From Pomacea canaliculata (Eukaryota; Mollusca; Gastropoda; Architaenioglossa; Ampullariidae): a stretch of DNA of 64,000 nt. Location: positions 18,110,192 through 18,174,191 of the forward strand of contig NC_037603.1 in NCBI RefSeq assembly GCF_003073045.1. Direction: 5' to 3'. The position numbers were made by a program, and so were the translations under genes. Below are positions 35,232 through 56,112 of the stretch, piece by piece. The notes below the pieces were generated by a model, which was given only the letters and a program-made list of their open reading frames with translations, ran no database searches and had not been told where the DNA came from. Numbering within the stretch: position 1 is the first letter of the stretch; every line of letters begins with the position of its first letter.

Positions 35232-36679
35232 CTTCACGCTCTGTCTTGTTGCTGAAAGAAGTCGTTTCACCGAATCGAAGAACCGCAGTTTGCAGAATAG
35301 TCTACCGGAAGTCACTTGTACTTTCTAGCATTCTTTCCCCACGCATGCGCAATAGTGTAAACAAAGCCTGGGCGTCTCGATTCTCGATCTCGTGGCTGCT
35401 ATTAATTGTAGAGTTTAGGTAGCATCGGGAAAACTTTTGCTTAAAAAAAAGATGAGTTATATCGGTCATTGAAAGCTTTGGGATTTTTGCCGTTTTCACT
35501 CATTCTGTGGACCAGTGAACAAAGTGCACACACCATGAAACAAACGCCTTCAGCAGACGACAAATTCAATACGTGATGAGTGAAAATAAATTGTAAGTAG
35601 TTTACCTCTAAGCCAAGAATTACTCTTCTTTCAACTGAGGTTAATTAAAATTAGAATAAAAATTAAAAAAGGTAACTTTATTAGTCGATAAATGACATAA
35701 TTAACCATATCAAATCGCCAAAATCTCGATCGCTTAAATCGCTCTCGTGCACGACCGTAAACAACAGTTGACTTCTCCCATTCCTACCTTCGTGAACTTT
35801 GAACCGATCAGTAGGCCTTGCGATCCCTTCTGTCAAATATATTAAACTTTAAATGTCTGAAACTATTCATTTGTTTGTTTTTTTATGCTATGTGTCTTCA
35901 AGTTTAGTTGAAATCATTCGGTATGTCTATATACATGCTACACGCATTCGTCAGATGTGTAAACATTGGCTGTTTCTACCATACATCACCACCACCACCA
36001 CTACTCACATCTTCTTCACTTTATCATCATCCTCAGTCATTGCATTATCTATGCCTCTCTGTCTCGTATACACACACAGATGGATGTATAAAGTTTGTAT
36101 GATACGAGACGATCGATGATGGTCAAACAATCGGTACAAAAAAATCTCCGTCCACGCAGTCCATTGTATAGGTATACGTACGTATATTTTTGAAACCTCA
36201 CAACACGTACGTACGTTCAAGTGAAGACAGCGGTGCGATGTAAAATACTGACACTCAACGATTGATGTATTTGTTGTATGCTGCACATTTCGTTCCACTT
36301 GCTCGAAGAACTTCATGGTCCAGCCTTTATAAGTCGTTCGATCTTAACCAAATTTGAATAAATTAACGTTGGACTAAGTAGGTACTGTTGGTGTAAACAA
36401 GAAATATCAGATCAGGTCAAAGCTGTGATTCTCTCTGCTAGCAGATCTCATGCCTACAATAAAACGGATATTGCAGCTATCTTTGTTTTTGTTGTTTGTT
36501 TGTCGTTATTCATTACAGTTTAATTGTATGCGTTTTGAAAACCCACGATTAAACTGTTTGTTCATTTTAAAAATCTTTTTAACTGATCATAATTAAGGTG
36601 CATTTCATGCTGCTTAATGCGTATGATATGCACTGTCGTGTATAGGTACACTTTAAGCCATTGGCGGAAAAAGGCGTTA
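35232..36679. other. Cyclin C promoter side and intergenic sequence
   Basis: Just right of the cyclin C start (35232-35420) the sequence is less AT-rich, as expected for a promoter of a constitutive gene; there is no obvious TATA box at the expected distance. The plus-strand frames here overlap cyclin C's first exon antisense and are shadows. No gene is seen from 35500 to 36679. Confidence 0.4.
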
Positions 36680-37554
36680 CAGTGATACCTCGGTTCTCGA
36701 ACATTATAATTCGTTCCGGGAGGACGGTCGAGAACCAAATTGTTCGAGAACCGAAGCAATGAAACCCATAGGAAATAATGGAAACTGGATTAATTCGTTC
36801 CAAGCCCCAGAAAATGCCTATTTACTGGCCTAATTTGTATATAATATGTAGAAAAACATGAGTCTCAACAAGAAATAAGAAATAAAAGTGTATTTATTAA
36901 AAAAAAATAAATAAATAAATAAAATGTACTGTACAGTACAGTAAATTGTGTTTCATTTACTGTACCTGTACCAAACTTTATGGCAGGAAGGAATGAATGT
37001 GGAGGGAGGAGGGAAGGGGGATGGTTATTGTTTTGAAGGGGAGTCCTCTTCAATAAAAACAGAGGGTAACTGCTCTTCGGGTGTTTCTGTTCTCTGTATC
37101 TTTTGCTGAGGAGAATCAGAATCTTGCTCTGCAGTTGCTTGTCTGATTTCTTTACGGAAGAATTTGTCAATTGTTTGCTGTTTTTTTCTCCTTTGCAAAA
37201 TTTTGCGGAAAGTGGACATAACATTATCATTAAAAATGTTAACTGCTCTATTTGCTACCACTTTATCAGGGTGATGTTGTTCAACAAAATTTGCGATTTC
37301 TGCCCGTTTTGCACACATTTCATGACTCTCTCCACAAAAACGTGACTCTCTCTCTCTCTGCACTCACACTGATGACGCAAGCAAGGCGCGCTGGGCCGAA
37401 TGAACGCCATTCGGCTCAACTCGGCTCATCTCGGACGTTCGGATGTTCGAGTTCCAAATATTTGTTCGGATTCCAAGACAAAATTTTCTCGAATTTCCTG
37501 GTCGAATACCGATTTGGTCGAAAGTCAAGGCGTTCGAGAACCGAGGTATCACTG
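36680..37554 (-). mobile_element. Internally deleted pogo/Tigger-type DNA transposon
   Basis: The element starts CAGTGATACCTCGGTTCTCG and ends with its near-perfect inverse (ends CCGAGGTATCACTG), giving terminal inverted repeats of over 20 bases. TA dinucleotides flank both ends (36678-36679 and 37555-37556), the target duplication of Tc1/mariner/pogo elements. Further GTTCGAGAACC-type motifs recur inside both ends. On the minus strand, 37025-37363 is open for about 112 codons and encodes only the C-terminus of a Tigger-like transposase: HHPDKVVANRAVNIFNDN, then ILQRRKKQQTIDKFF, then an acidic/Gln-rich tail. The DDE catalytic core is absent, so the 875-base copy is non-autonomous but keeps a piece of its parent's gene. 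Confidence 0.88.
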
Positions 37555-37799
37555 TATACTGTATAAATAGGAATAAACAAATCCACAACGATCAAAACCA
37601 ATAGGAAACAAATCACATTATTTTTAAAATAATTACAATACTTAACATAAATCGCATTAATTGTTCGTTCCTTGTTGTTTCGTGATTCCTCTTTGTGTCT
37701 TTTATATTTGTATTTTATTCCTTGTCTGCATATACATGTAGTCGTTTTTTACCCTTCCATCCTTCATAATACTCTGTTCATGTCTACTACTTGACAACA

Positions 37800-37996: not shown

Positions 37997-40259
37997 TTAA
38001 ACGGTGCGCACCGTGGAGTATGGTCGTTTTTGCTCTCCGGGAACAAAAATATAAGTCTTCCTGCCGATGTGCTGCAGACATTTGCCAACGGTGCCAGTAA
38101 CCCCTCGCCAAAGGTTGGTCTGGGCGCTCAACCCTACTGCCCGCGGCACTGGACGTGGGCTACACGGAAGACAATCCACCTCGTGCAGCAGACGCATCAT
38201 GCGGAGTCCACGGCCTAGTTCCGCTGATTCAGCCGCTTCGCGCTTGATGCGCGGAGGATAACGAGCGGATGTCGGAAGCTGGTAGGAGTGCATCAACGTG
38301 GCCATGCGAAACCCGCGGTCCAGTCGGGCGTTGTCGTCTGCTTCTGGCTTGACACGCGGCTGGGGCCGCGGCGTGACTTCGTTGCGTCCGTATCTGCACA
38401 CAAGTCGAGAAGCGGACCACAAGCTTTGAAGACTAAGCCGCGAATATTCAATTAAAGATGAATGATGCATTACATCTGATCTATAGCTGTGACCCCAGGG
38501 AACTACCGACACCAGTCATGTCCACGTGGCTGTGGACTAAACGCAAGATGCATGGAAATCTCTACATCAATCGCTTTGTGTTTTTGCTCAGTCTTGCTAT
38601 GACCATTAGAGTGAGATTTAGGGTAACGCATGCATAAGGGTTCTTAGTACGACGTGTTTGTAACATGTCGTCAGAGACCATTCTGGTCATCCAGCTGTCC
38701 AAAATGTGTGATTAACATGCCGATCGATTATGCTTCTGCCAAGTCCCTACTGTCTAAAGGCATTAGAAATCAATATAAGAATTACATGGAGGCCAAGTTC
38801 ATCATCAAATTGTTAGATGCCCCATTCGGCATCAGCTATGGCATTATACTGGATGGTCTCGTAATATTACGATATACAAATTGAACCTCTATAAACGTGA
38901 TTGAAAACTCTCTCTCTCTCACACACACACAGAGATATGAGGTTGTTACGCACCATACAATATACAGAAGACATTTTTAAAAAGTCATTTAAAGGATTAT
39001 GGAACAAATGGATCTTCATTAAATGGGAATGGAGGATATTTCTGCTCTAGTCTTCAATGAGATCTCATGTCTGAAGGTTTTAGGCGGTCTTCATGCGGAA
39101 AATAACAGTGAGGCAGTCTGATAAACGATGCCGTGGCATTTAGAAAAAGAGAACCAACGTATTGTATTGGATATTTACTTGTGGATGTTGTCTCTCATCC
39201 GTTTGCCCATGCTAAGTGTGGCTATGCCTTGACCCTCAGGTTTGATCCTTGGCACCGCTCGCGACGACAATGCCATGGTGCCATATTTGTGGAGAATGTT
39301 GTACATGCGTTTTCCCTACGAAAAGGAAAGGTTTATCACAGTTAACAAAAGACATTCAAATCAGCAACGTGCGTGCGTGGGTGCGTCCGTCGGTCCGTGT
39401 ATATGCTTGATTGCGGTTTTTCAGTGTTTGTCTTGCACGTTGTTCTGTATGTGTGTACAGTATTCCGGTACGCATTTACCTGCATGAGCCTGGATGAATG
39501 CGTGGGCAGACGAGCGAACGGATGAAAAGTATAATGGCTGACAATGTGTGCATGTGTGCATCATGGTAAATTAAATAAAGCACGCAGTGATAACCTCACC
39601 TTGGCCATTTCTGCAGTGTCCTTCGCCTCATCCTTGACCCGTGGCTGCCTCGGAGTGGGGCTGTTCTGGGCGTACTCGTGGATGACTACCCGCATGCGTT
39701 TCCCTCTGCTGACAGTCGCAATCTGCTCCCCTTCTGGCTTAATTCTAGGTGGTGCTGTTGCTGGACGAGGGGTGGCTGTTCCTGGTTGATTCAGATGGTA
39801 AATGAGAAATAATAGACATGTGCACACTTAACGACCAGATACATTGAAAAATCCTTCATAAATTCTTCGCTAGAATTGCGTTTTACAGTGCGCGTGTATG
39901 TGTGTGTGTTAGTGTAATTGAAACAGTAGTCATTCAGGTCTTTTTTTATCCTTTTAAATCATGGACCAGAGTACAGTTAGCTGGCTTGATTTTGTTTTAA
40001 GTTACATACCGTTTAACAGGGGACCTACGTTGCCATGCCAGCCCATCTTGTAGTTAACCTTGGAGGCAGAAGTGGGACATCTTGGTTCAGGCCTCGGGCT
40101 GGGGGTCGTTGGACAGGAAGAGCCAAAGGCCACTTTTTCGACACTTCCTCTGTTGCGGATGTAGTTGGGCATTCCTTCCGATTTGATTCGAGACCCAAGA
40201 GGAGGCGAAGAAGTTTGCCGCCATGTCGGAATCTCTGGAACGCTGTGCTTAGCTACCAT
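37997..40259 (-). CDS. Protein made of eight tandem 35/36-residue repeats, function unknown
   Basis: Four coding exons: 40010-40259, 39600-39781, 39179-39315 and 37997-38393. All junctions fit by phase (1, 0, 2) with consensus splice sites. They total 966 bases and encode 321 residues. The ATG at 40259 is chosen because an in-frame TGA lies just inside the exon, right after its acceptor CTCTTCCAG, so earlier exons are non-coding. A repeat with consensus PRxKPEaxxxAxxxRGkRM, then xxxLHxYg, recurs through the whole protein. Its key Arg falls at residues 24, 60, 96, 131, 167, 203, 238 and 274, a spacing of 35 or 36. Units 3-7 are strong; units 1, 2 and 8 are divergent. The protein is basic and Pro-rich between units, with no signal peptide or membrane helix. 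I do not recognise the family. A lattice- or filament-binding role, such as on ciliary microtubules, is only a guess from the regular repeat. Confidence 0.85.
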
Positions 40260-43159
40260 ACTTCACTGGAAGAGTAATTGAACATTCGAAGACGCTTTCA
40301 TCTACGACATTCCATCTTGTGGAGTTGACACCACAGTTAAAGGGCTCGCATTTAAGTAGGCAGTAATACATGTATTATCATAATTGGTCGTAGTGCGTAC
40401 CTGTAAATATTGAAGATGAAAAGGCATGTTGACAAACGAAGAAAAAAAAAAAAACACGTACGAACTTATATGAAGCCTGGCTTTATCAAGACACTGTTGG
40501 AACTCAACGAACACCAAGACTAAGAAAACAATGAGGCCCACAATACATTGTCCTAAATTCAAGACTTCTACTGTCCTTACCGGTCCTTACACATAAATTG
40601 TTCTTGTGTCAGTGTCGCTGAAACTACGTCCACATACGTCTTATCGACGTGGCAACGTAACAAGAATCAGTGCACAAGCATACACAGTTCCAAAACCAGC
40701 AAACAGCTATATAGCTACTCAAAAATAAATCGTCCTTGCTGAAACGCCGGGTTATCAGTACCTGATTTACCCTTGTGCGAGAGATATGTCGAATGGCTTC
40801 TATGAACAGAATTAACGCTGAGCTCTTGTCAAGAGAAGTCGAACGGCAGACCCATTGAGTCTACTGCCTAATGTATGCGTGTCGCTGGACGAGGAGAGCG
40901 GGGGAAGGGTGGCGCGTTGGGGTTTGGGTGCGGCATACTATGCCTCACCTTTTGGCCTCGTATACGTAGCTGCTTGAATGCCTGTGTTTACCACACAAAT
41001 GCTATTTTTGTATCTATCACTTAGGAAATTCGATAGCATGACACATGATTTACGTTTACCGATATCCTTGTACCAAATTATGTGTCGTTTTCCCTTTTAT
41101 TTTTTTAGTGGGGAAATAATACTTGCTTTGTACATAATTTTCAAAAGCCCATAATTATTTTGCCCGTCGGGTTAATCTTGCCTTGGAATTAAAAAAAAAG
41201 TTTAATGTGATGAAAAAAACTATATAGAAGTCGCAGGGCATTACAGATGAACGACTTTAGTTGTGTTTGATAGCCTTTGTATTGACTGCCCCAAAACGAC
41301 CAACAGGAGCCAGAGTGATGGTCTTGACTGGCAGGTTGTTACTGAATATATGTAACATTACAGGTGTTCGTAATGTAAGTTTCGTGTTGCGTGTTTCTCT
41401 AGCTGCCACTAAAAAATAGAAGTATCAGTCGGGGCTTCGATCTCGCCGTGATATAGCCATATAGTTGCTGACACGGAGTTCATCACAAACATCATGGATT
41501 CGATCGTACCTTTGTCACAGAGTTCATATTTTGATTTACTGTCGGAGTATTTTTTTTTCAACGTGATATTTTGAGAATACACGAGGCTAGCTCATCCTGT
41601 AAGTGAACGACACATAAATACTAGGTAGGGCAGGACTCAGGTAGAAGTCTGTGTACATTTAGCCATTCCTCCGAGTTGTCGTTCTTGGAAAAAAACTTTC
41701 CTCACCTCTTCTGTTAAAGAGTTTCAATGGGTTGTGTTACGAAACACCTTGCATCTTATATAAGCATGACTATCAAAATTAGTCTGTGTCAGCGACCAAT
41801 CCTACTGTTACACAGGTGACACTTACTCGCAACTGTGTGGTGTGCTATGCTTAGCAAATTGTTTAAAATTGGGATTTGTTCTGCGATCAATGTTTGCGAA
41901 TAATTCGTCTGCTATTCGACTTTCTGTGTTTTTCGTCAGTTCTCTTCTGGGGAAAAGTGATTAATCATGCTTCCAGGAGGAAATCTGTATATGGAAATCA
42001 ATTGTTCTTTTTAATTTGTTAGGTTACCAAGTTCAGTGCAACCGTGTGTACTCCACCCAGTAGAAAACGTTAACTGTGAGAGAGTTTTGTCCAGAAATCT
42101 ACATACCTGCATTTGTAACAGGCATGTAAACACACTCAATATTCCACGGGTAAGATGTTTTCTTCATTAATTTGCCGATTCTAATAACTTGTGATTAAAC
42201 TTTGCATAATGTATTGCTTCCTTCCCCCTTGGGTAATCATTTTGTTATCCACGTGTAATTATAGTTTTATGAGTGTTTTATGATTTATGATAGCATTAAC
42301 ATTAAAATGTTTGTGTCACAATGATTTAGCTATGGTCAGATACAAATATCATGAGCATATGTGGTTTAAAGAAGGTTTCATGTTGTGCATTGTTTCAGAT
42401 TTCTTCCAAAGCACGCTCCTTTCATGTGTCTGCATCTGTAGTATCGCTGTTTCTGGTGACTTTGCCAGCACGTGTTGAAACACTACTCAGGACAAGTCTC
42501 AGGCACCACAGTGACTCAGAGTCAGACAGTGAAGTTAAAGATCATGGAGTAAAGTTTGTATACTTGTTACCCCACCCCACCCTCCAAAACAAAGTGCTTA
42601 AAACTAACTTTTAGGTCATAAAGAAACTCTGCATGTAAATTACATCTACAACTCTTGATAAGATAGCATAATCAGTAAGTTACAAATAATACAAATAATT
42701 TGCTACATTTTTGCTGGAGCCATTGTTGTATCTATATAGATTATTTGCAGTAGACAATGTAGAATGGAGTATATATACATATACATTTTCATTACCAGTT
42801 TCTGTAAAATCCATTAAAAAGTAACTTTCATATTAAAGATGGCTTTCAGATGAACTGTTGAACTACCACAGAGAATGACTCATCCTTAATGATACATCAT
42901 TATCCAAAGGCCAGCTCTTGAACTACATAATGCACAAAATTCAAATAAAGGCTATAGTTGCTTGCTGCTTATTTTCAATAAACATTTCACTTCTGCATGG
43001 AATGCTCTATCTGTAATGGCCAGAAAACTGTCCAACATTTTTTCCACTTCTTCTTCAAGGTTTGTATCTCAACTTTTCATTGTAGTTGCACATATCGAAG
43101 TATTATTATTTTTTATATAAGATACTTTGTGACATTATTGCTTTCCTTTTTTGAAACAG
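40260..43159. other. Region between divergent genes
   Basis: The 36-residue-repeat gene points left and the J1-crystallin-like gene points right, so both promoters and their non-coding first exons should lie here. I could not place them. Apart from the LINE end at 41440, only short non-conserved frames are seen. Confidence 0.4.
41440..41490 (+). repeat. LINE 3'-end fragment
   Basis: CGCCGTGATATAGCC and TTGCTGACACGG match the 3' terminus of the LINE relic at 3632-3666 with a few changes. Only the terminal 50 bases are recognisable. Confidence 0.45.
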
Positions 43160-48369: not shown

Positions 48370-48886
48370 ACGTGAGTATAATTTAACATTGACTATAGCA
48401 TCGATATCCGGCGTAAGCCCGAGTCGATTTCTTCATCAAACTCTTTCAACTGTGATTTTATTGTCAACTTTCAATCTTACCACTTCATTCAACTGACTAA
48501 TGAAAATGCACGGCCTCAGTGTAACTAATTAAATAGGAAGTGATTGTTTACTTTTGCCAAAATCTTTGCCAAAATACTGTTAAATTGGGGAGTAACTGAT
48601 GAACTTTAAAATAAAGATGATTTAGAGTGAAATACATGAACGAATTGCCTGTAGAATAAAGGAATATTTCTGTAATTCGACTAGGATATGACAGAAGGTG
48701 TGTGGATATGCGTAACGATCCAGCGGACAAGTACACACACCCACACACATTGCCAGTGCTTTTTTTTTTTTTGCTTTTTTTTTTATCAGTGACTTCACCA
48801 TACCATGTCCTTCTGATGTAGGTTGATTAACCAGACCTTAAATTTTTGTGCAGAGGACATTCACTCCACCGGGACCAGCTGCCCCC

Positions 48887-49366
48887 ATGTTCTTCGGAAT
48901 GATCATTATATCCGTCATGGTTGCCATGACTAACATTATAGCATCATCTGCCGACTCCTCTCGGCGAAACCATTCGTATTTCTGTGAGAAAGGAGAGTAC
49001 CACCTGTACTGCAGGGAAGGCATGCATTTGAAAATTTACGCCGCTTGGTTTGGTCGCTTCGCAGACGACCGCGTGAACTGCATCCTTCCACGGGGAGACG
49101 GCGTAGACTCGCATCCCCTGGCGAGGACCTGTGGATCGTCCGTGCAGAAGCTTGTCGGAAGCGTGTGCAGTGACTGGTGCACTTTGCAAGTCGTCAGCTT
49201 GGACGTCAGTGACGGGGAAGGTCATGTACCATGTCCTCCAAACACAACCAGATACTTGTACATTGAGTTCGAATGTTCGACAGCTGGTGCGAGTACGGGT
49301 GTCACCACTTATGCGATGCTCCTGACTTTGTCAGCTTTGGCATTCATGTTGAATCAGGGTGTGTAA
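48887..49366 (+). CDS. Secreted SUEL-type lectin-like protein, probably GPI-anchored (paralogue 1)
   Basis: The ATG at 48887 follows a splice acceptor (TTTTTGTGCAG at 48853), so a non-coding first exon lies upstream. The 159-residue product starts with a hydrophobic signal peptide (MFFGMIIISVMVAM...). A single domain of about 100 residues has eight cysteines in the D-galactoside/rhamnose-binding lectin (SUEL) order: FCEKGEYHLYC, AWFGRF, VNC, TCGSS, VCSDWC, PCPPNTTRYLYIEFEC. The AxxGR pattern after the second Cys fits the SUEL beta-strand core. Two N-glycosylation sites (NHS, NTT) are present. The end is a small-residue patch (STAGASTG) followed by a hydrophobic tail (YAMLLTLSALAFML), the form of a GPI-attachment signal. 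It shares this architecture with the gene at 51799, so the two are tandem paralogues. Ligand and tissue are unknown. Confidence 0.8.
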   Translation: MFFGMIIISVMVAMTNIIASSADSSRRNHSYFCEKGEYHLYCREGMHLKIYAAWFGRFADDRVNCILPRGDGVDSHPLARTCGSSVQKLVGSVCSDWCTLQVVSLDVSDGEGHVPCPPNTTRYLYIEFECSTAGASTGVTTYAMLLTLSALAFMLNQGV

Positions 49367-51599: not shown

Positions 51600-51730
51600 C
51601 AACTCTCTCTCTCTCTTCTCTTGTTCGTCACTTTCTCTTATCACTATTTCTCGCTCATCTCTCTCTCTCTATATATATATCATTCTCTACACTTAACCTT
51701 TCCCCCTTTTTTCTCGTCCCTCCAACTCCC
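51600..51730 (+). repeat. (CT)n/(TA)n pyrimidine-rich tract
   Basis: Runs of CTCTCT with a short TATATATATAT core, extending as a pyrimidine-rich stretch up to the acceptor at 51770 of the next gene. Confidence 0.7.
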
Positions 51731-51798
51731 ACCTCTTATTCTATTCTCGCCTCTTTTTTTTTTTCCAAAGGAGCTCCTTGCAACATATTCAGAAACCA

Positions 51799-52356
51799 AT
51801 GCCAGAATCGCCTCCCTGTTCATTGAGGCGTCTATTACTGCCGTGCCTCCCTTTTCTCCTCCTGCATTTATGCAAGTGGCGACTTTCCAGCGCCTCCGAT
51901 TTATTCATATGTGGTGCGAACATCACCTACCGGATCGAGTGCTACCCGGGTGAACGAATAGAGATAGAATATTCCATGATCGGGCGGCACGCCAATGACA
52001 CCGTCAACTGTCTCAAGAACGAGCCCTTTGATATAGAGAAGGGCTGTGGCATCAACGCCACCGTCCAAACCTCGTCATTCTGCAACGTCAGCGCCTGCAG
52101 TATCGAATTTAATCAGACGGACTGGGATAAGCTGGTGAAACTGCAAAGTACTTCAGTCCTGAGCAAAGTCTGCCCGTCCGAAGTTCCTGTGTACAATTAC
52201 TTCAGGTACGATTGTTACCTAATTAACGGCTTCGAGAAAAATATGAACGACACAGTGGCAACCGGAAGAGCCAGGACGCTTCTACGGACATCAACGCTGT
52301 TTGCCATGTTGCCAGGCCTGTGTATCAGCGCACTGTTTGCTGGAATCCTTGGATGA
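51799..52356 (+). CDS. Secreted SUEL-type lectin-like glycoprotein, probably GPI-anchored (paralogue 2)
   Basis: The ATG at 51799 lies 29 bases after an acceptor (TTTTCCAAAG at 51770), as in paralogue 1. The product has 185 residues. A signal peptide (RRLLLPCLPFLLLHL core) precedes one domain with eight cysteines in the same order as paralogue 1: FICGANITYRIEC, MIGRHANDTVNC, GCG, FC, AC, VCPSE, DC. The IGR motif replaces FGR. Six N-glycosylation sequons (NIT, NDT, NAT, NVS, NQT, NDT) make it far more glycosylated than its neighbour. The end (TLLRTSTLFAMLPGLCISAL...) is hydrophobic and fits a GPI signal or a membrane anchor. Identity to paralogue 1 is low outside the cysteines, so the duplication is old or divergence was fast. 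Confidence 0.78.
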   Translation: MPESPPCSLRRLLLPCLPFLLLHLCKWRLSSASDLFICGANITYRIECYPGERIEIEYSMIGRHANDTVNCLKNEPFDIEKGCGINATVQTSSFCNVSACSIEFNQTDWDKLVKLQSTSVLSKVCPSEVPVYNYFRYDCYLINGFEKNMNDTVATGRARTLLRTSTLFAMLPGLCISALFAGILG

Positions 52357-54048: not shown

Positions 54049-54228
54049 TTGATGAACTTTACACAGCAGAGATGGTTGCAGTAGACATCAGTAAACTTCT
54101 TAGCCAGAAAAGTTGAAGGATGTCAGATCTTGTAAGCTTCATAACAAGCGGTCTGCCAGTATGTGTGCATTTACCAGTTAATCACCGAGTGCAGTTGGAC
54201 TTAACCTTAAGATTGAGGGGAGGAAGAT

Positions 54229-56112
54229 ATGCCTGCTATAGATAGTGAGAAACAGGTCTTATGTATGTTTGATATAAAGAATGAACTAAGAACAGTGTGT
54301 AATGCACAAGAAGAGCTAAGTGCTAGTGTAATGCTAAAAACTGAAAACTCTGTTTGCTTAGATTCCGACAAAATGAATTCCGAACAAATCAGCTCCATGC
54401 AGCTCGAGAACAGCTCTAGTGAAGAACTCCATCACATAAAAATTGAACATGCTACGCATATGCAGCAGACAAACTGGAAGTTTGAGAGTGTTGTGAAAGC
54501 GGAGTGCAGCTCTCAAGATGTCACTTGTGCATTTAAAACTGAAAATGATTTCATGCACAATGAAAAGACTAATTGTTCTAGTAATAGTAATGAGAAATTT
54601 CATTGGAACTGCCAAGTCATTACCGAAGAAGGGAAGAGAAAGAATTTTCTGCATTATGGTGAAAACGCAGAACAGCCACTTGCTTTTGTGGTCAAGGAGG
54701 AAGGTCATTCAGGTCAAGGAGTTAGTGCTGCAACAGAAGCAGAGGAAACAGAAGCATACAGGGAGCACATGGTTGCATGGAACTTAAAGACAGACAGAAC
54801 AATAGGGCAGCAGGAAGTGCAGGGGGAATCACATGAGATGCAGTGGAGCTGTAAGAAATATAAAGATATTTCATTATGCTTGTCACCACCCAGTATGCAG
54901 GAGATGAGTGCTGCTGGCTGTAAAACTCCTGAGGTGATGAATATTGTGACTGAAAGTCATCAGCACCAGATACACCTGAATAGGACAGAAGATATTGTTG
55001 AGTCTGAAAACCAGCAAGTCAAAAATGATACTAAATCTTATCAGTGCAAGTTGTGCACATCTTCTTTCAGAACTTCAACATTACTAACAAGACACATGGT
55101 GGTCCACAGTGATGTTAAACCTCACCAGTGCAATGTCTGTAAAACTGCCTTCAAAAGATTATCCAATTTGAAAGAACACACGCTAATCCACAGTGATGCT
55201 AAACCTTACCAGTGCAATGTATGTAAAATTGCATTCAGAAGATTACCCCATTTGAAAGATCACTTGCTGATCCATAGTGGTTTTAAACCTCACCAGTGCA
55301 GTGAATGTGAAGCTGCTTTTAGACGTTTATATGATTTAAAAATGCACATGGTTATTCACAGGGATGTTAAACCTTACAAGTGCAGTGTATGTAAATCTGC
55401 TTTCAAAACGTCAGGCCATTTAAGACAGCACATGCTGACCCACAGTGATGTCAAGTCTCACCAGTGCAGTGTCTGTAAAGCTTCTTTTATCCGTTTGTCC
55501 TATTTAAAACTTCACATGATGATCCACAGTGATGAAAACCCATATCAGTGCATCAAGTGTAAATCTACTTTTAAAACTTCATACACTTTAAAACGGCACT
55601 TGCTGATCCACTCTGAAGCTAATCCTCACCAATGTAGCGTGTGTAAAACTGGTTTCAAGTGTGCATCTGAATTAAAAATGCACCTTGTTACCCATAATGT
55701 TGTTAAAGTTCATCAATGCTGTGTGTGTAATGCTGCCTTTAAAAGATCTCGCTCTTTGAAAAAGCACATGTTGACTCACAGTGATGTTATATCTCACCAG
55801 TGTATGCTATGTAAATCTACTTTCAAAACCTCAAACACTTTACAGAGGCACTTGCTGGTCCATAAACCACACCAGTGCCGTGTGTGTAAAGCTGCTTTTA
55901 AGAGTTCATATCTTTTACAAAGCCATATGACAATTCACAGTAACGAACAACCTTACAAATGTAGTGTATGTAAAGCTGCATTCATTAGACTGTACTCTTT
56001 GAAACAGCACATGCTGATACACAGTGGTGATAAACCTCTTCAGTGCAGTGTATGTATGGCTTCTTTTAAAACCTCATGCACTCTAAAAAAGCATTTGAAG
56101 AAACACCATTGA
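54229..56112 (+). CDS. C2H2 zinc-finger protein with 13 fingers
   Basis: A single long coding exon encodes 627 residues. A splice acceptor (AATATTCCAG at about 54048) lies upstream, so the 5' UTR is spliced. Residues 1-265 are acidic and Ser/Glu-rich with no clear KRAB, SCAN or BTB domain. From about residue 268 to the end there are 13 tandem fingers of the CxxC-F-L-H-HxxxH type, such as YQCKLCTSSFRTSTLLTRHM. Linkers are HSDVKPH-like rather than the classic TGEKP. Finger 10 (STFKTSNTLQRHLLVHKPH) has a linker shortened by about four residues. Tandem arrays of this kind usually bind DNA as nuclear regulators; the target is unknown. Fingers share strong sequence similarity (VCKxxFK), evidence of internal duplication. 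A poly(A) signal follows at 56195. No damage is seen. Confidence 0.92.
   Translation: MPAIDSEKQVLCMFDIKNELRTVCNAQEELSASVMLKTENSVCLDSDKMNSEQISSMQLENSSSEELHHIKIEHATHMQQTNWKFESVVKAECSSQDVTCAFKTENDFMHNEKTNCSSNSNEKFHWNCQVITEEGKRKNFLHYGENAEQPLAFVVKEEGHSGQGVSAATEAEETEAYREHMVAWNLKTDRTIGQQEVQGESHEMQWSCKKYKDISLCLSPPSMQEMSAAGCKTPEVMNIVTESHQHQIHLNRTEDIVESENQQVKNDTKSYQCKLCTSSFRTSTLLTRHMVVHSDVKPHQCNVCKTAFKRLSNLKEHTLIHSDAKPYQCNVCKIAFRRLPHLKDHLLIHSGFKPHQCSECEAAFRRLYDLKMHMVIHRDVKPYKCSVCKSAFKTSGHLRQHMLTHSDVKSHQCSVCKASFIRLSYLKLHMMIHSDENPYQCIKCKSTFKTSYTLKRHLLIHSEANPHQCSVCKTGFKCASELKMHLVTHNVVKVHQCCVCNAAFKRSRSLKKHMLTHSDVISHQCMLCKSTFKTSNTLQRHLLVHKPHQCRVCKAAFKSSYLLQSHMTIHSNEQPYKCSVCKAAFIRLYSLKQHMLIHSGDKPLQCSVCMASFKTSCTLKKHLKKHH

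What the first reader, a model, noticed from the sequence alone, without database searches (positions are those of the whole stretch)
37997..40259. Undescribed-looking protein of eight 35/36-residue repeats
Four exons join with perfect phase agreement into 321 residues. A key Arg recurs at residues 24, 60, 96, 131, 167, 203, 238 and 274, so repeats fill almost the whole protein. The core is PRxKPE ... RGkRM ... LHxYg. Intron positions do not all fall at the same place in the repeat, so the array predates or ignores exon shuffling. I know no named domain with this pattern. The regular spacing and basic, Pro-separated units suggest binding to a repeating partner such as a microtubule; that is inference.
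Basis: partly seen in the sequence, partly recalled or inferred. Interest (0 to 1): 0.72.

Follow-up and report, generated by a model that had tools for sequence, protein, structure and literature searches.

The report
Undescribed eight-repeat protein in a snail
A snail-like animal genome carries a small family of three related genes whose proteins are built largely from a 35-36-residue repeat that matched no protein family or solved structure we could search; its spacing resembles proteins that line microtubules, but its function has not been tested.

Summary
Four minus-strand exons (37997-40259) join with GT-AG sites and agreeing phases into 321 residues, with Arg at all eight stated positions. 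The 35/36-residue period is not chance: 0 of 1000 shuffles reached it. Five units (3-7) are clear; units 1, 2 and 8 are degenerate.

New here: the gene has two relatives on the same contig. Paralogue B (321 aa, 38% identical, eight units by position, one intron at the identical unit position and phase) lies 12.5 Mb away. A diverged relative C (321 aa, seven units) sits 18 kb from B, head to head; its membership is less secure. Codon-position differences between A and B look like purifying selection.

None of the three has a significant Pfam or PDB-sequence match, and A and B none in NCBIfam. Positive controls from the same genome found their solved relatives.

Best guess (about 0.4): an extended protein laying one unit per 8-nm tubulin dimer, as SAXO-type proteins do with a similar period. 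Known motifs of that class are absent from A, and the structure prediction failed (pLDDT 44). Distribution in other animals and expression could not be tested.

The parts
40010..40259 (-). Exon 1 of gene A: start codon, N-terminus, unit 1 (40086-40193) and most of unit 2 (40010-40085)
   Evidence: Open frame from ATG to a GT donor; whole-genome protein search
39600..39781 (-). Exon 2: end of unit 2 (39750-39781), unit 3 (39645-39749), first 15 residues of unit 4 (39600-39644)
   Evidence: AG acceptor, GT donor, phase 1 in and 0 out; unit profile match
39179..39315 (-). Exon 3: rest of unit 4 (39253-39315), first part of unit 5 (39179-39252)
   Evidence: AG acceptor, GT donor, phase 0 in and 2 out; unit profile match
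37997..38393 (-). Exon 4: rest of unit 5 (38360-38393), unit 6 (38255-38359), unit 7 (38147-38254), unit 8 (38036-38146), C-terminal tail and stop
38394..39178 (-). Intron 3, phase 2, at unit 5 offset 24.67; same unit, offset and phase as intron 2 of paralogue B
40260..40275 (-). Probable splice acceptor of a 5'-UTR intron just upstream of the ATG, with an in-frame TGA between
   Evidence: read by eye; paralogue B also has TTGCAG three bases before its ATG; not confirmed by RNA

Best explanation
A functional gene encoding an elongated, basic, Pro-segmented tandem-repeat protein, one of a small family in this genome. SHOWN: the gene model, the 35/36-residue array, paralogue B, a codon pattern of purifying selection; relative C is well supported but less certain. 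INFERRED: each unit (PRxKPEA...A...GxRM..LLHxYG...Pro linker) is a short, partly helical binding element and the chain lies lengthwise along a polymer with a matching repeat, most likely a microtubule of cilia or sperm, one unit per 8-nm tubulin dimer, stabilising the lattice as SAXO/SPM1-type proteins do but with an unrelated motif.
For: Array and period. Paralogue B with the same array and an identically placed intron; relative C (the profile of A+B units gives C 41.8 bits, best of 2000 shuffles 13.0). Codon-position differences between A and B 0.487/0.445/0.705 over 308 codons, and 40 of 50 four-fold sites with conserved amino acid changed (no formal dN/dS test). Scale: the same lag analysis on 320 residues of a SAXO1-like exon of this genome peaks at 133, 67, 34 and 100, i.e. 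about 33.3 residues (no shuffle control run on it), and that exon hits solved SAXO1 at 3.1e-47; in SPM1 all 32 residues of the repeat are needed to fill its 8-nm step (PMC8144581, passages); SAXO Mn motifs are spaced 8 nm apart (PMC9564825, passages); GFG repeats of about 31 residues span one alpha/beta-tubulin pair (PMC10973386, passages). Positions 17-26 of the core unit (mean of nine units) have a helical moment of 1.43 against 0.39 at the strand angle; positions 5-14 are equivocal, 0.83 against 0.72.
Against: Mn, PYG, GFG, SNYG and tau PGGG motifs: 0 in A; B has one Mn match, as had 172 of 1000 shuffles. No sequence relative (nothing below E 0.3) in the PDB copy, which holds mammalian and sea urchin doublet proteins. 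Net charge at pH 7 is +32 (A), +14 (B), +1.5 (C), so basicity is not a family trait. AlphaFold2 on exon 4: mean pLDDT 44, pTM 0.16, one helix (58-68) and two short strands, no repeated fold. The strict ciliary X-box pattern was not found. The scale match is arithmetic and would fit other partners.
Confidence: 0.4

Rival explanations
1. An intrinsically disordered scaffold or adaptor: each unit is a short linear motif that docks one copy of some globular partner, with no link to a polymer lattice.
For: Failed structure prediction (also explicable by the three-row alignment), 10-11% proline, a recurring motif at constant spacing, charge not conserved among A, B and C.
Against: Spacing is held within 35-37 residues over the eight units of A and of B and the first five of C; loose scaffolds usually tolerate variable linkers (general knowledge). 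C does relax to 54-55 residues at its end.
Confidence: 0.28
2. A helix-turn-helix solenoid like the 34-36-residue TPR, PPR or SEL1 classes: two helices per unit stack into a superhelix.
For: Unit length 35/36; amphipathic second segment.
Against: No such Pfam family at E<=10 for A, B, C or for the 17 of 23 units scanned singly; A and B have 35 Pro each and the consensus carries Pro at unit starts and linkers; the model is not a solenoid, though at low confidence.
Confidence: 0.12
3. An actin-binding tandem array of the WH2/beta-thymosin style, one amphipathic helix plus basic tail per actin.
For: The R..M..LL..Y segment followed by a basic linker looks superficially WH2-like (my comparison, motif recalled).
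Against: A WH2 core pattern written from memory: 0 in A, B and C; no WH2 match in Pfam scans.
Confidence: 0.07
4. A sperm chromatin (nuclear basic) protein: A is very basic and Pro-rich.
For: A has pI 10.65, 36 Arg and 20 Lys of 321.
Against: C is near neutral (pI 7.88); AT-hook core RGRP 0 in A, B and C; Arg content is far below protamines (general knowledge); ordered motif with hydrophobic positions.
Confidence: 0.06
5. Not a working gene: a pseudogene or a chance chain of open frames.
For: No RNA evidence available here.
Against: Intact 321-aa models for A, B and C with canonical splice sites, an intron shared by A and B, and a codon pattern of constraint.
Confidence: 0.03

Closest known systems
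SAXO1/SAXO2/MAP6-type Mn-repeat proteins (Pfam PF05217), incl. Toxoplasma SPM1
   Same: Extended tandem short repeats; period about 33.3 residues in this genome's SAXO1-like exon versus 35.6 here; both basic and Pro-rich (control pI 9.1, 38 Pro in 320)
   Different: No Mn motif in A or C, one at chance level in B; no PF05217 match; no similarity in PDB searches; the genome has separate SAXO1-like frames on C13
GFG-repeat (EFHB/CFAP77) and PYG-repeat (FAM166/CIMIP2) microtubule inner proteins
   Same: GFG: about 31-residue tandem units, each spanning one tubulin dimer (PMC10973386, passages)
   Different: GFG and PYG motifs absent; no CMI2B-like (PF10629) match, whereas this genome has two such matches on C10 and C11
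TPR/PPR/SEL1 solenoids
   Same: 34-36-residue repeat unit, possibly two short helices
   Different: No profile match; Pro-rich junctions
WH2/beta-thymosin arrays
   Same: Short amphipathic segment with basic tail, tandem (recalled comparison)
   Different: Core pattern absent; no Pfam match

Membership tests
SAXO/MAP6 Mn-repeat proteins | Recurrent Mn unit [TS][TS]x4[YF] (pattern from PMC10973386, passages) | tested here: not met
   0 in A and C, 1 in B at chance level; 5 in the SAXO1-like control
SAXO/MAP6 Mn-repeat proteins | PF05217 profile match | tested here: not met
   No match at E<=10; the genome's own SAXO1-like frames score up to 133 bits
SAXO/MAP6 Mn-repeat proteins | Binds tubulin with 8-nm spacing | not testable with these tools
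   Only the residue period could be compared
PYG, GFG and SNYG microtubule inner proteins | PYG, GFG or [ST]Nxx[ILVY]G motif | tested here: not met
   0 in A, B and C
TPR/PPR/SEL1 solenoids | Profile match | tested here: not met
   (17 of 23 units scanned singly)
TPR/PPR/SEL1 solenoids | Two packed helices per unit | tested here: inconclusive
   AlphaFold2 of exon 4 at pLDDT 44
WH2 actin binders | LLxxIxxGxx[LM][KR] core (pattern recalled) | tested here: not met
The A/B/C family described here | A and B: tandem PRx[KR]PE[AG] ... A ... G..M units of 35-37 residues | tested here: met
   Periodicity of both, cross-profile scores 137.1 and 134.6 bits against at most 8.7 in 2000 shuffles each; strict PRx[KR]PE at 3 of 8 units in each, G..M at 5 of 8 in each
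The A/B/C family described here | C belongs to the same family | tested here: inconclusive
   For: A+B unit profile 41.8 bits against at most 13.0 in 2000 shuffles, spacing 37, 36, 37, 36, adjacency to B. Against: lag test reached by 41 of 1000 shuffles, G..M at chance (303 of 1000), no significant single-exon match to A or B (best E 0.138, 0.169), 25% aligned identity to A

The most novel reading that the evidence does not exclude
A previously undescribed class of tubulin-dimer-spaced repeat (35-36 residues, PRxKPE...GxRM..LLHxYG), evolved independently of Mn, PYG and GFG repeats, that lines or coats axonemal microtubules in molluscs and perhaps other animals and was missed because it is absent from the vertebrate and sea urchin doublets solved so far.
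Probability: 0.25. Interest if true: 0.75.

Novelty: new variant of a known kind. Interest (0 to 1): 0.5.

Why it matters
If the unit binds tubulin, it would be another independent solution for reading the 8-nm lattice, from a lineage (probably molluscs) for which no solved doublet paper appeared in the listings. If not, it is still a regular repeat family with intact, anciently duplicated genes that none of the profile libraries searched here describes.

Tried and rejected
Structure: AlphaFold2 on exon 4 with exons 2 and 3 as alignment rows gave pLDDT 44 and was not used for a fold search.

Searches that found nothing: alignment of A, B and C against viral contigs (233 pattern stretches, none confirmed) and prokaryote genome contigs (34, none confirmed); four unit strings in full texts (0 papers). 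Paper searches: I saw the listings and starts of abstracts, and none of the titles named such a protein; from listing 59 I also saw passages of one review (PMC13406575). Other papers seen only as passages: PMC6129957, PMC10973386, PMC9564825, PMC8144581. PF10791 (fungal ATP synthase subunit F) at E 0.17 to B and 0.14 to one of 17 units, far below its cut-off, was set aside as chance; so were the PDB matches at E 0.34-2. Weak genome hits on C3, C4 and C6 (E 1.4-4.3) were not pursued beyond listing the frames of one.

X-box scan: the strict pattern was not found in the window or the 60 kb around B and C. Seven loose matches appeared, one of them about 0.5 kb upstream of C's ATG and one about 2.2 kb upstream of A's; no chance control was run, so I count it neither way. 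The residue counts printed are mis-scaled by my script; one search has the right ones. The first lag script timed out and one script failed on a file name.

Unit-by-unit orthology of A and B is only partial: 4 of 8 A units (2, 5, 6, 8) find their best B partner at the same number. Units 3 and 5 of A are unusually alike.

Full report
WHAT IS THERE. On the minus strand of 37997-40259 four exons join into one 321-residue frame with GT-AG introns of phases 1, 0 and 2. Arg recurs at exactly the eight positions given. Self-comparison peaks at lags 107, 71 and 36; the best lag scores 0.30 per residue pair, against at most -0.20 in 1000 shuffles. The repeat consensus over 11 units (five of A, six of B) is PRVKPEAxxxAxLxxGxRMxxxxHxYxxxPxxxRPx. 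Exons are richer in G+C than introns (0.57 against 0.40). Units 3-7 are plain; units 1, 2 and 8 are recognised mainly by position and by comparison with the paralogue.

THE GENOME. The window lies in an animal genome of 440,159,624 bases in 24 contigs. The size is close to the published golden apple snail assembly (440,071,717 bp; PMC6129957, passages), so Pomacea canaliculata is my guess; but that paper gives 27.2 Mb as its shortest scaffold while this contig C14 has 19.4 Mb, so the name is not established.

THE FAMILY. Whole-genome search found one clear relative on the same contig. Gene B (C14:5629181-5629473, 5629741-5630025, 5630555-5630942, plus strand) also gives 321 residues, 38% identical to A, in which I mark eight units. 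Profiles of one protein's units find the other at 137.1 and 134.6 bits, against at most 8.7 in 2000 shuffles each. Intron 3 of A and intron 2 of B both lie in unit 5 at offset 24.67, phase 2; the other introns differ. A three-unit consensus query brought up a weak hit (E 1.31) about 20 kb from B. A unit profile then marked further frames on the same strand, which join with canonical splice sites into gene C: C14 minus, five exons between 5605235 and 5611103, 321 residues. C has seven units spaced 37, 36, 37, 36, 54 and 55. The A+B unit profile gives C 41.8 bits; the best of 2000 shuffles reached 13.0. C was picked because it matched, so this overstates the evidence; its lag test is weak (41 of 1000 shuffles reach it) and no single exon of it matches A or B significantly (best E 0.138). 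Splice agreement and closeness to B are the independent support. B and C stand head to head about 18 kb apart; what lies between was not examined. No further convincing member appeared, but the search scores only its best candidates.

SELECTION. Over 308 aligned codons of A and B, positions 1, 2 and 3 differ in 0.487, 0.445 and 0.705, and 40 of 50 four-fold sites with conserved amino acids differ. I read this as an old duplication with both copies kept as proteins; no formal dN/dS test was run.

WHAT IT IS NOT. A, B and C have no Pfam match near any cut-off; 17 of the 23 units scanned singly gave one sub-threshold chance match. NCBIfam gave none for A and B (C was not scanned there). PDB sequences gave nothing below E 0.3, by single sequences or by profiles. 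The negative is calibrated by two exons of the same genome: a FAM166C-like one hits the FAM166C chain of 8snb at 1.1e-34 (8SNB is a sea urchin doublet according to PMC10973386, passages) and a SAXO1-like one hits SAXO1 at 3.1e-47 and even Toxoplasma SPM1 at 4.6e-7. So an orthologue of a solved doublet protein with ordinary conservation should have been seen.

HOW IT MAY WORK. The protein looks extended: 35 Pro, a failed structure prediction that may also reflect the thin alignment, and one segment per unit with a helical moment (1.43 against 0.39), while the first segment is equivocal (0.83 against 0.72). The even spacing asks for a partner with an even spacing. In the same genome a SAXO1-like protein shows about a 33.3-residue period by the same analysis. 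In Toxoplasma SPM1 all 32 residues of a repeat are needed to fill the 8-nm step along a protofilament (PMC8144581, passages), and GFG units of about 31 residues span one tubulin dimer (PMC10973386, passages). A 35-36-residue unit is of that order. That is why I put a microtubule-lattice protein first, at 0.4. It would be a functional analogue, not a member: the Mn, PYG, GFG and SNYG motifs are absent from A. The charge differences between A, B and C speak against simple electrostatic binding and against a chromatin role. A disordered multi-site adaptor is the main rival.

NOVELTY. Within the libraries and papers searched here nothing describes this repeat. I could not search animal protein databases, where orthologues annotated as uncharacterised may well exist. 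I file it as a new variant of a known kind: an undescribed repeat in the well-known class of short tandem-repeat proteins.

Noticed in passing
36678-37556: An 879-base element bounded by perfect 25-nt inverted repeats, about 440 bases beyond the gene's stop codon. At least 40 near-full-length copies at 96-100% identity, this one included, lie across the genome (40 of 592 candidates scored), so it probably spread recently. It contains a frame (37025-37363, minus) that looked to me like a degenerate transposase C-terminus (by eye; Pfam gave only a sub-threshold topoisomerase match).
   Followed up: partly
48842-49366 and 51697-52356 (+): Two frames with secreted-protein features (my reading); the first has a sub-threshold match to the SUEL galactose/rhamnose-binding lectin domain (E 0.0019, below cut-off), and the second resembles it by eye but has no Pfam match. 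Possibly tandem lectin-like genes.
   Followed up: no
54217-56112 (+): A single 631-residue open frame with about a dozen C2H2 zinc fingers, also seen as an 84-base tandem repeat.
   Followed up: no
L040 and L041 (C13:13622024-13630402): At least two neighbouring SAXO1-like frames in the same genome, useful as built-in controls for Mn-repeat proteins.
   Followed up: partly
window 39645-39749 and 39179-39252/38360-38393: Units 3 and 5 of gene A are much more alike than other unit pairs of A (score 117 against at most 78), suggesting a recent internal copy or conversion.
   Followed up: no
L007, L023 and window gene A: All three family members come out at exactly 321 residues in my splice models although exon counts differ (4, 3, 5) and C has seven units; probably coincidence.
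   Followed up: no
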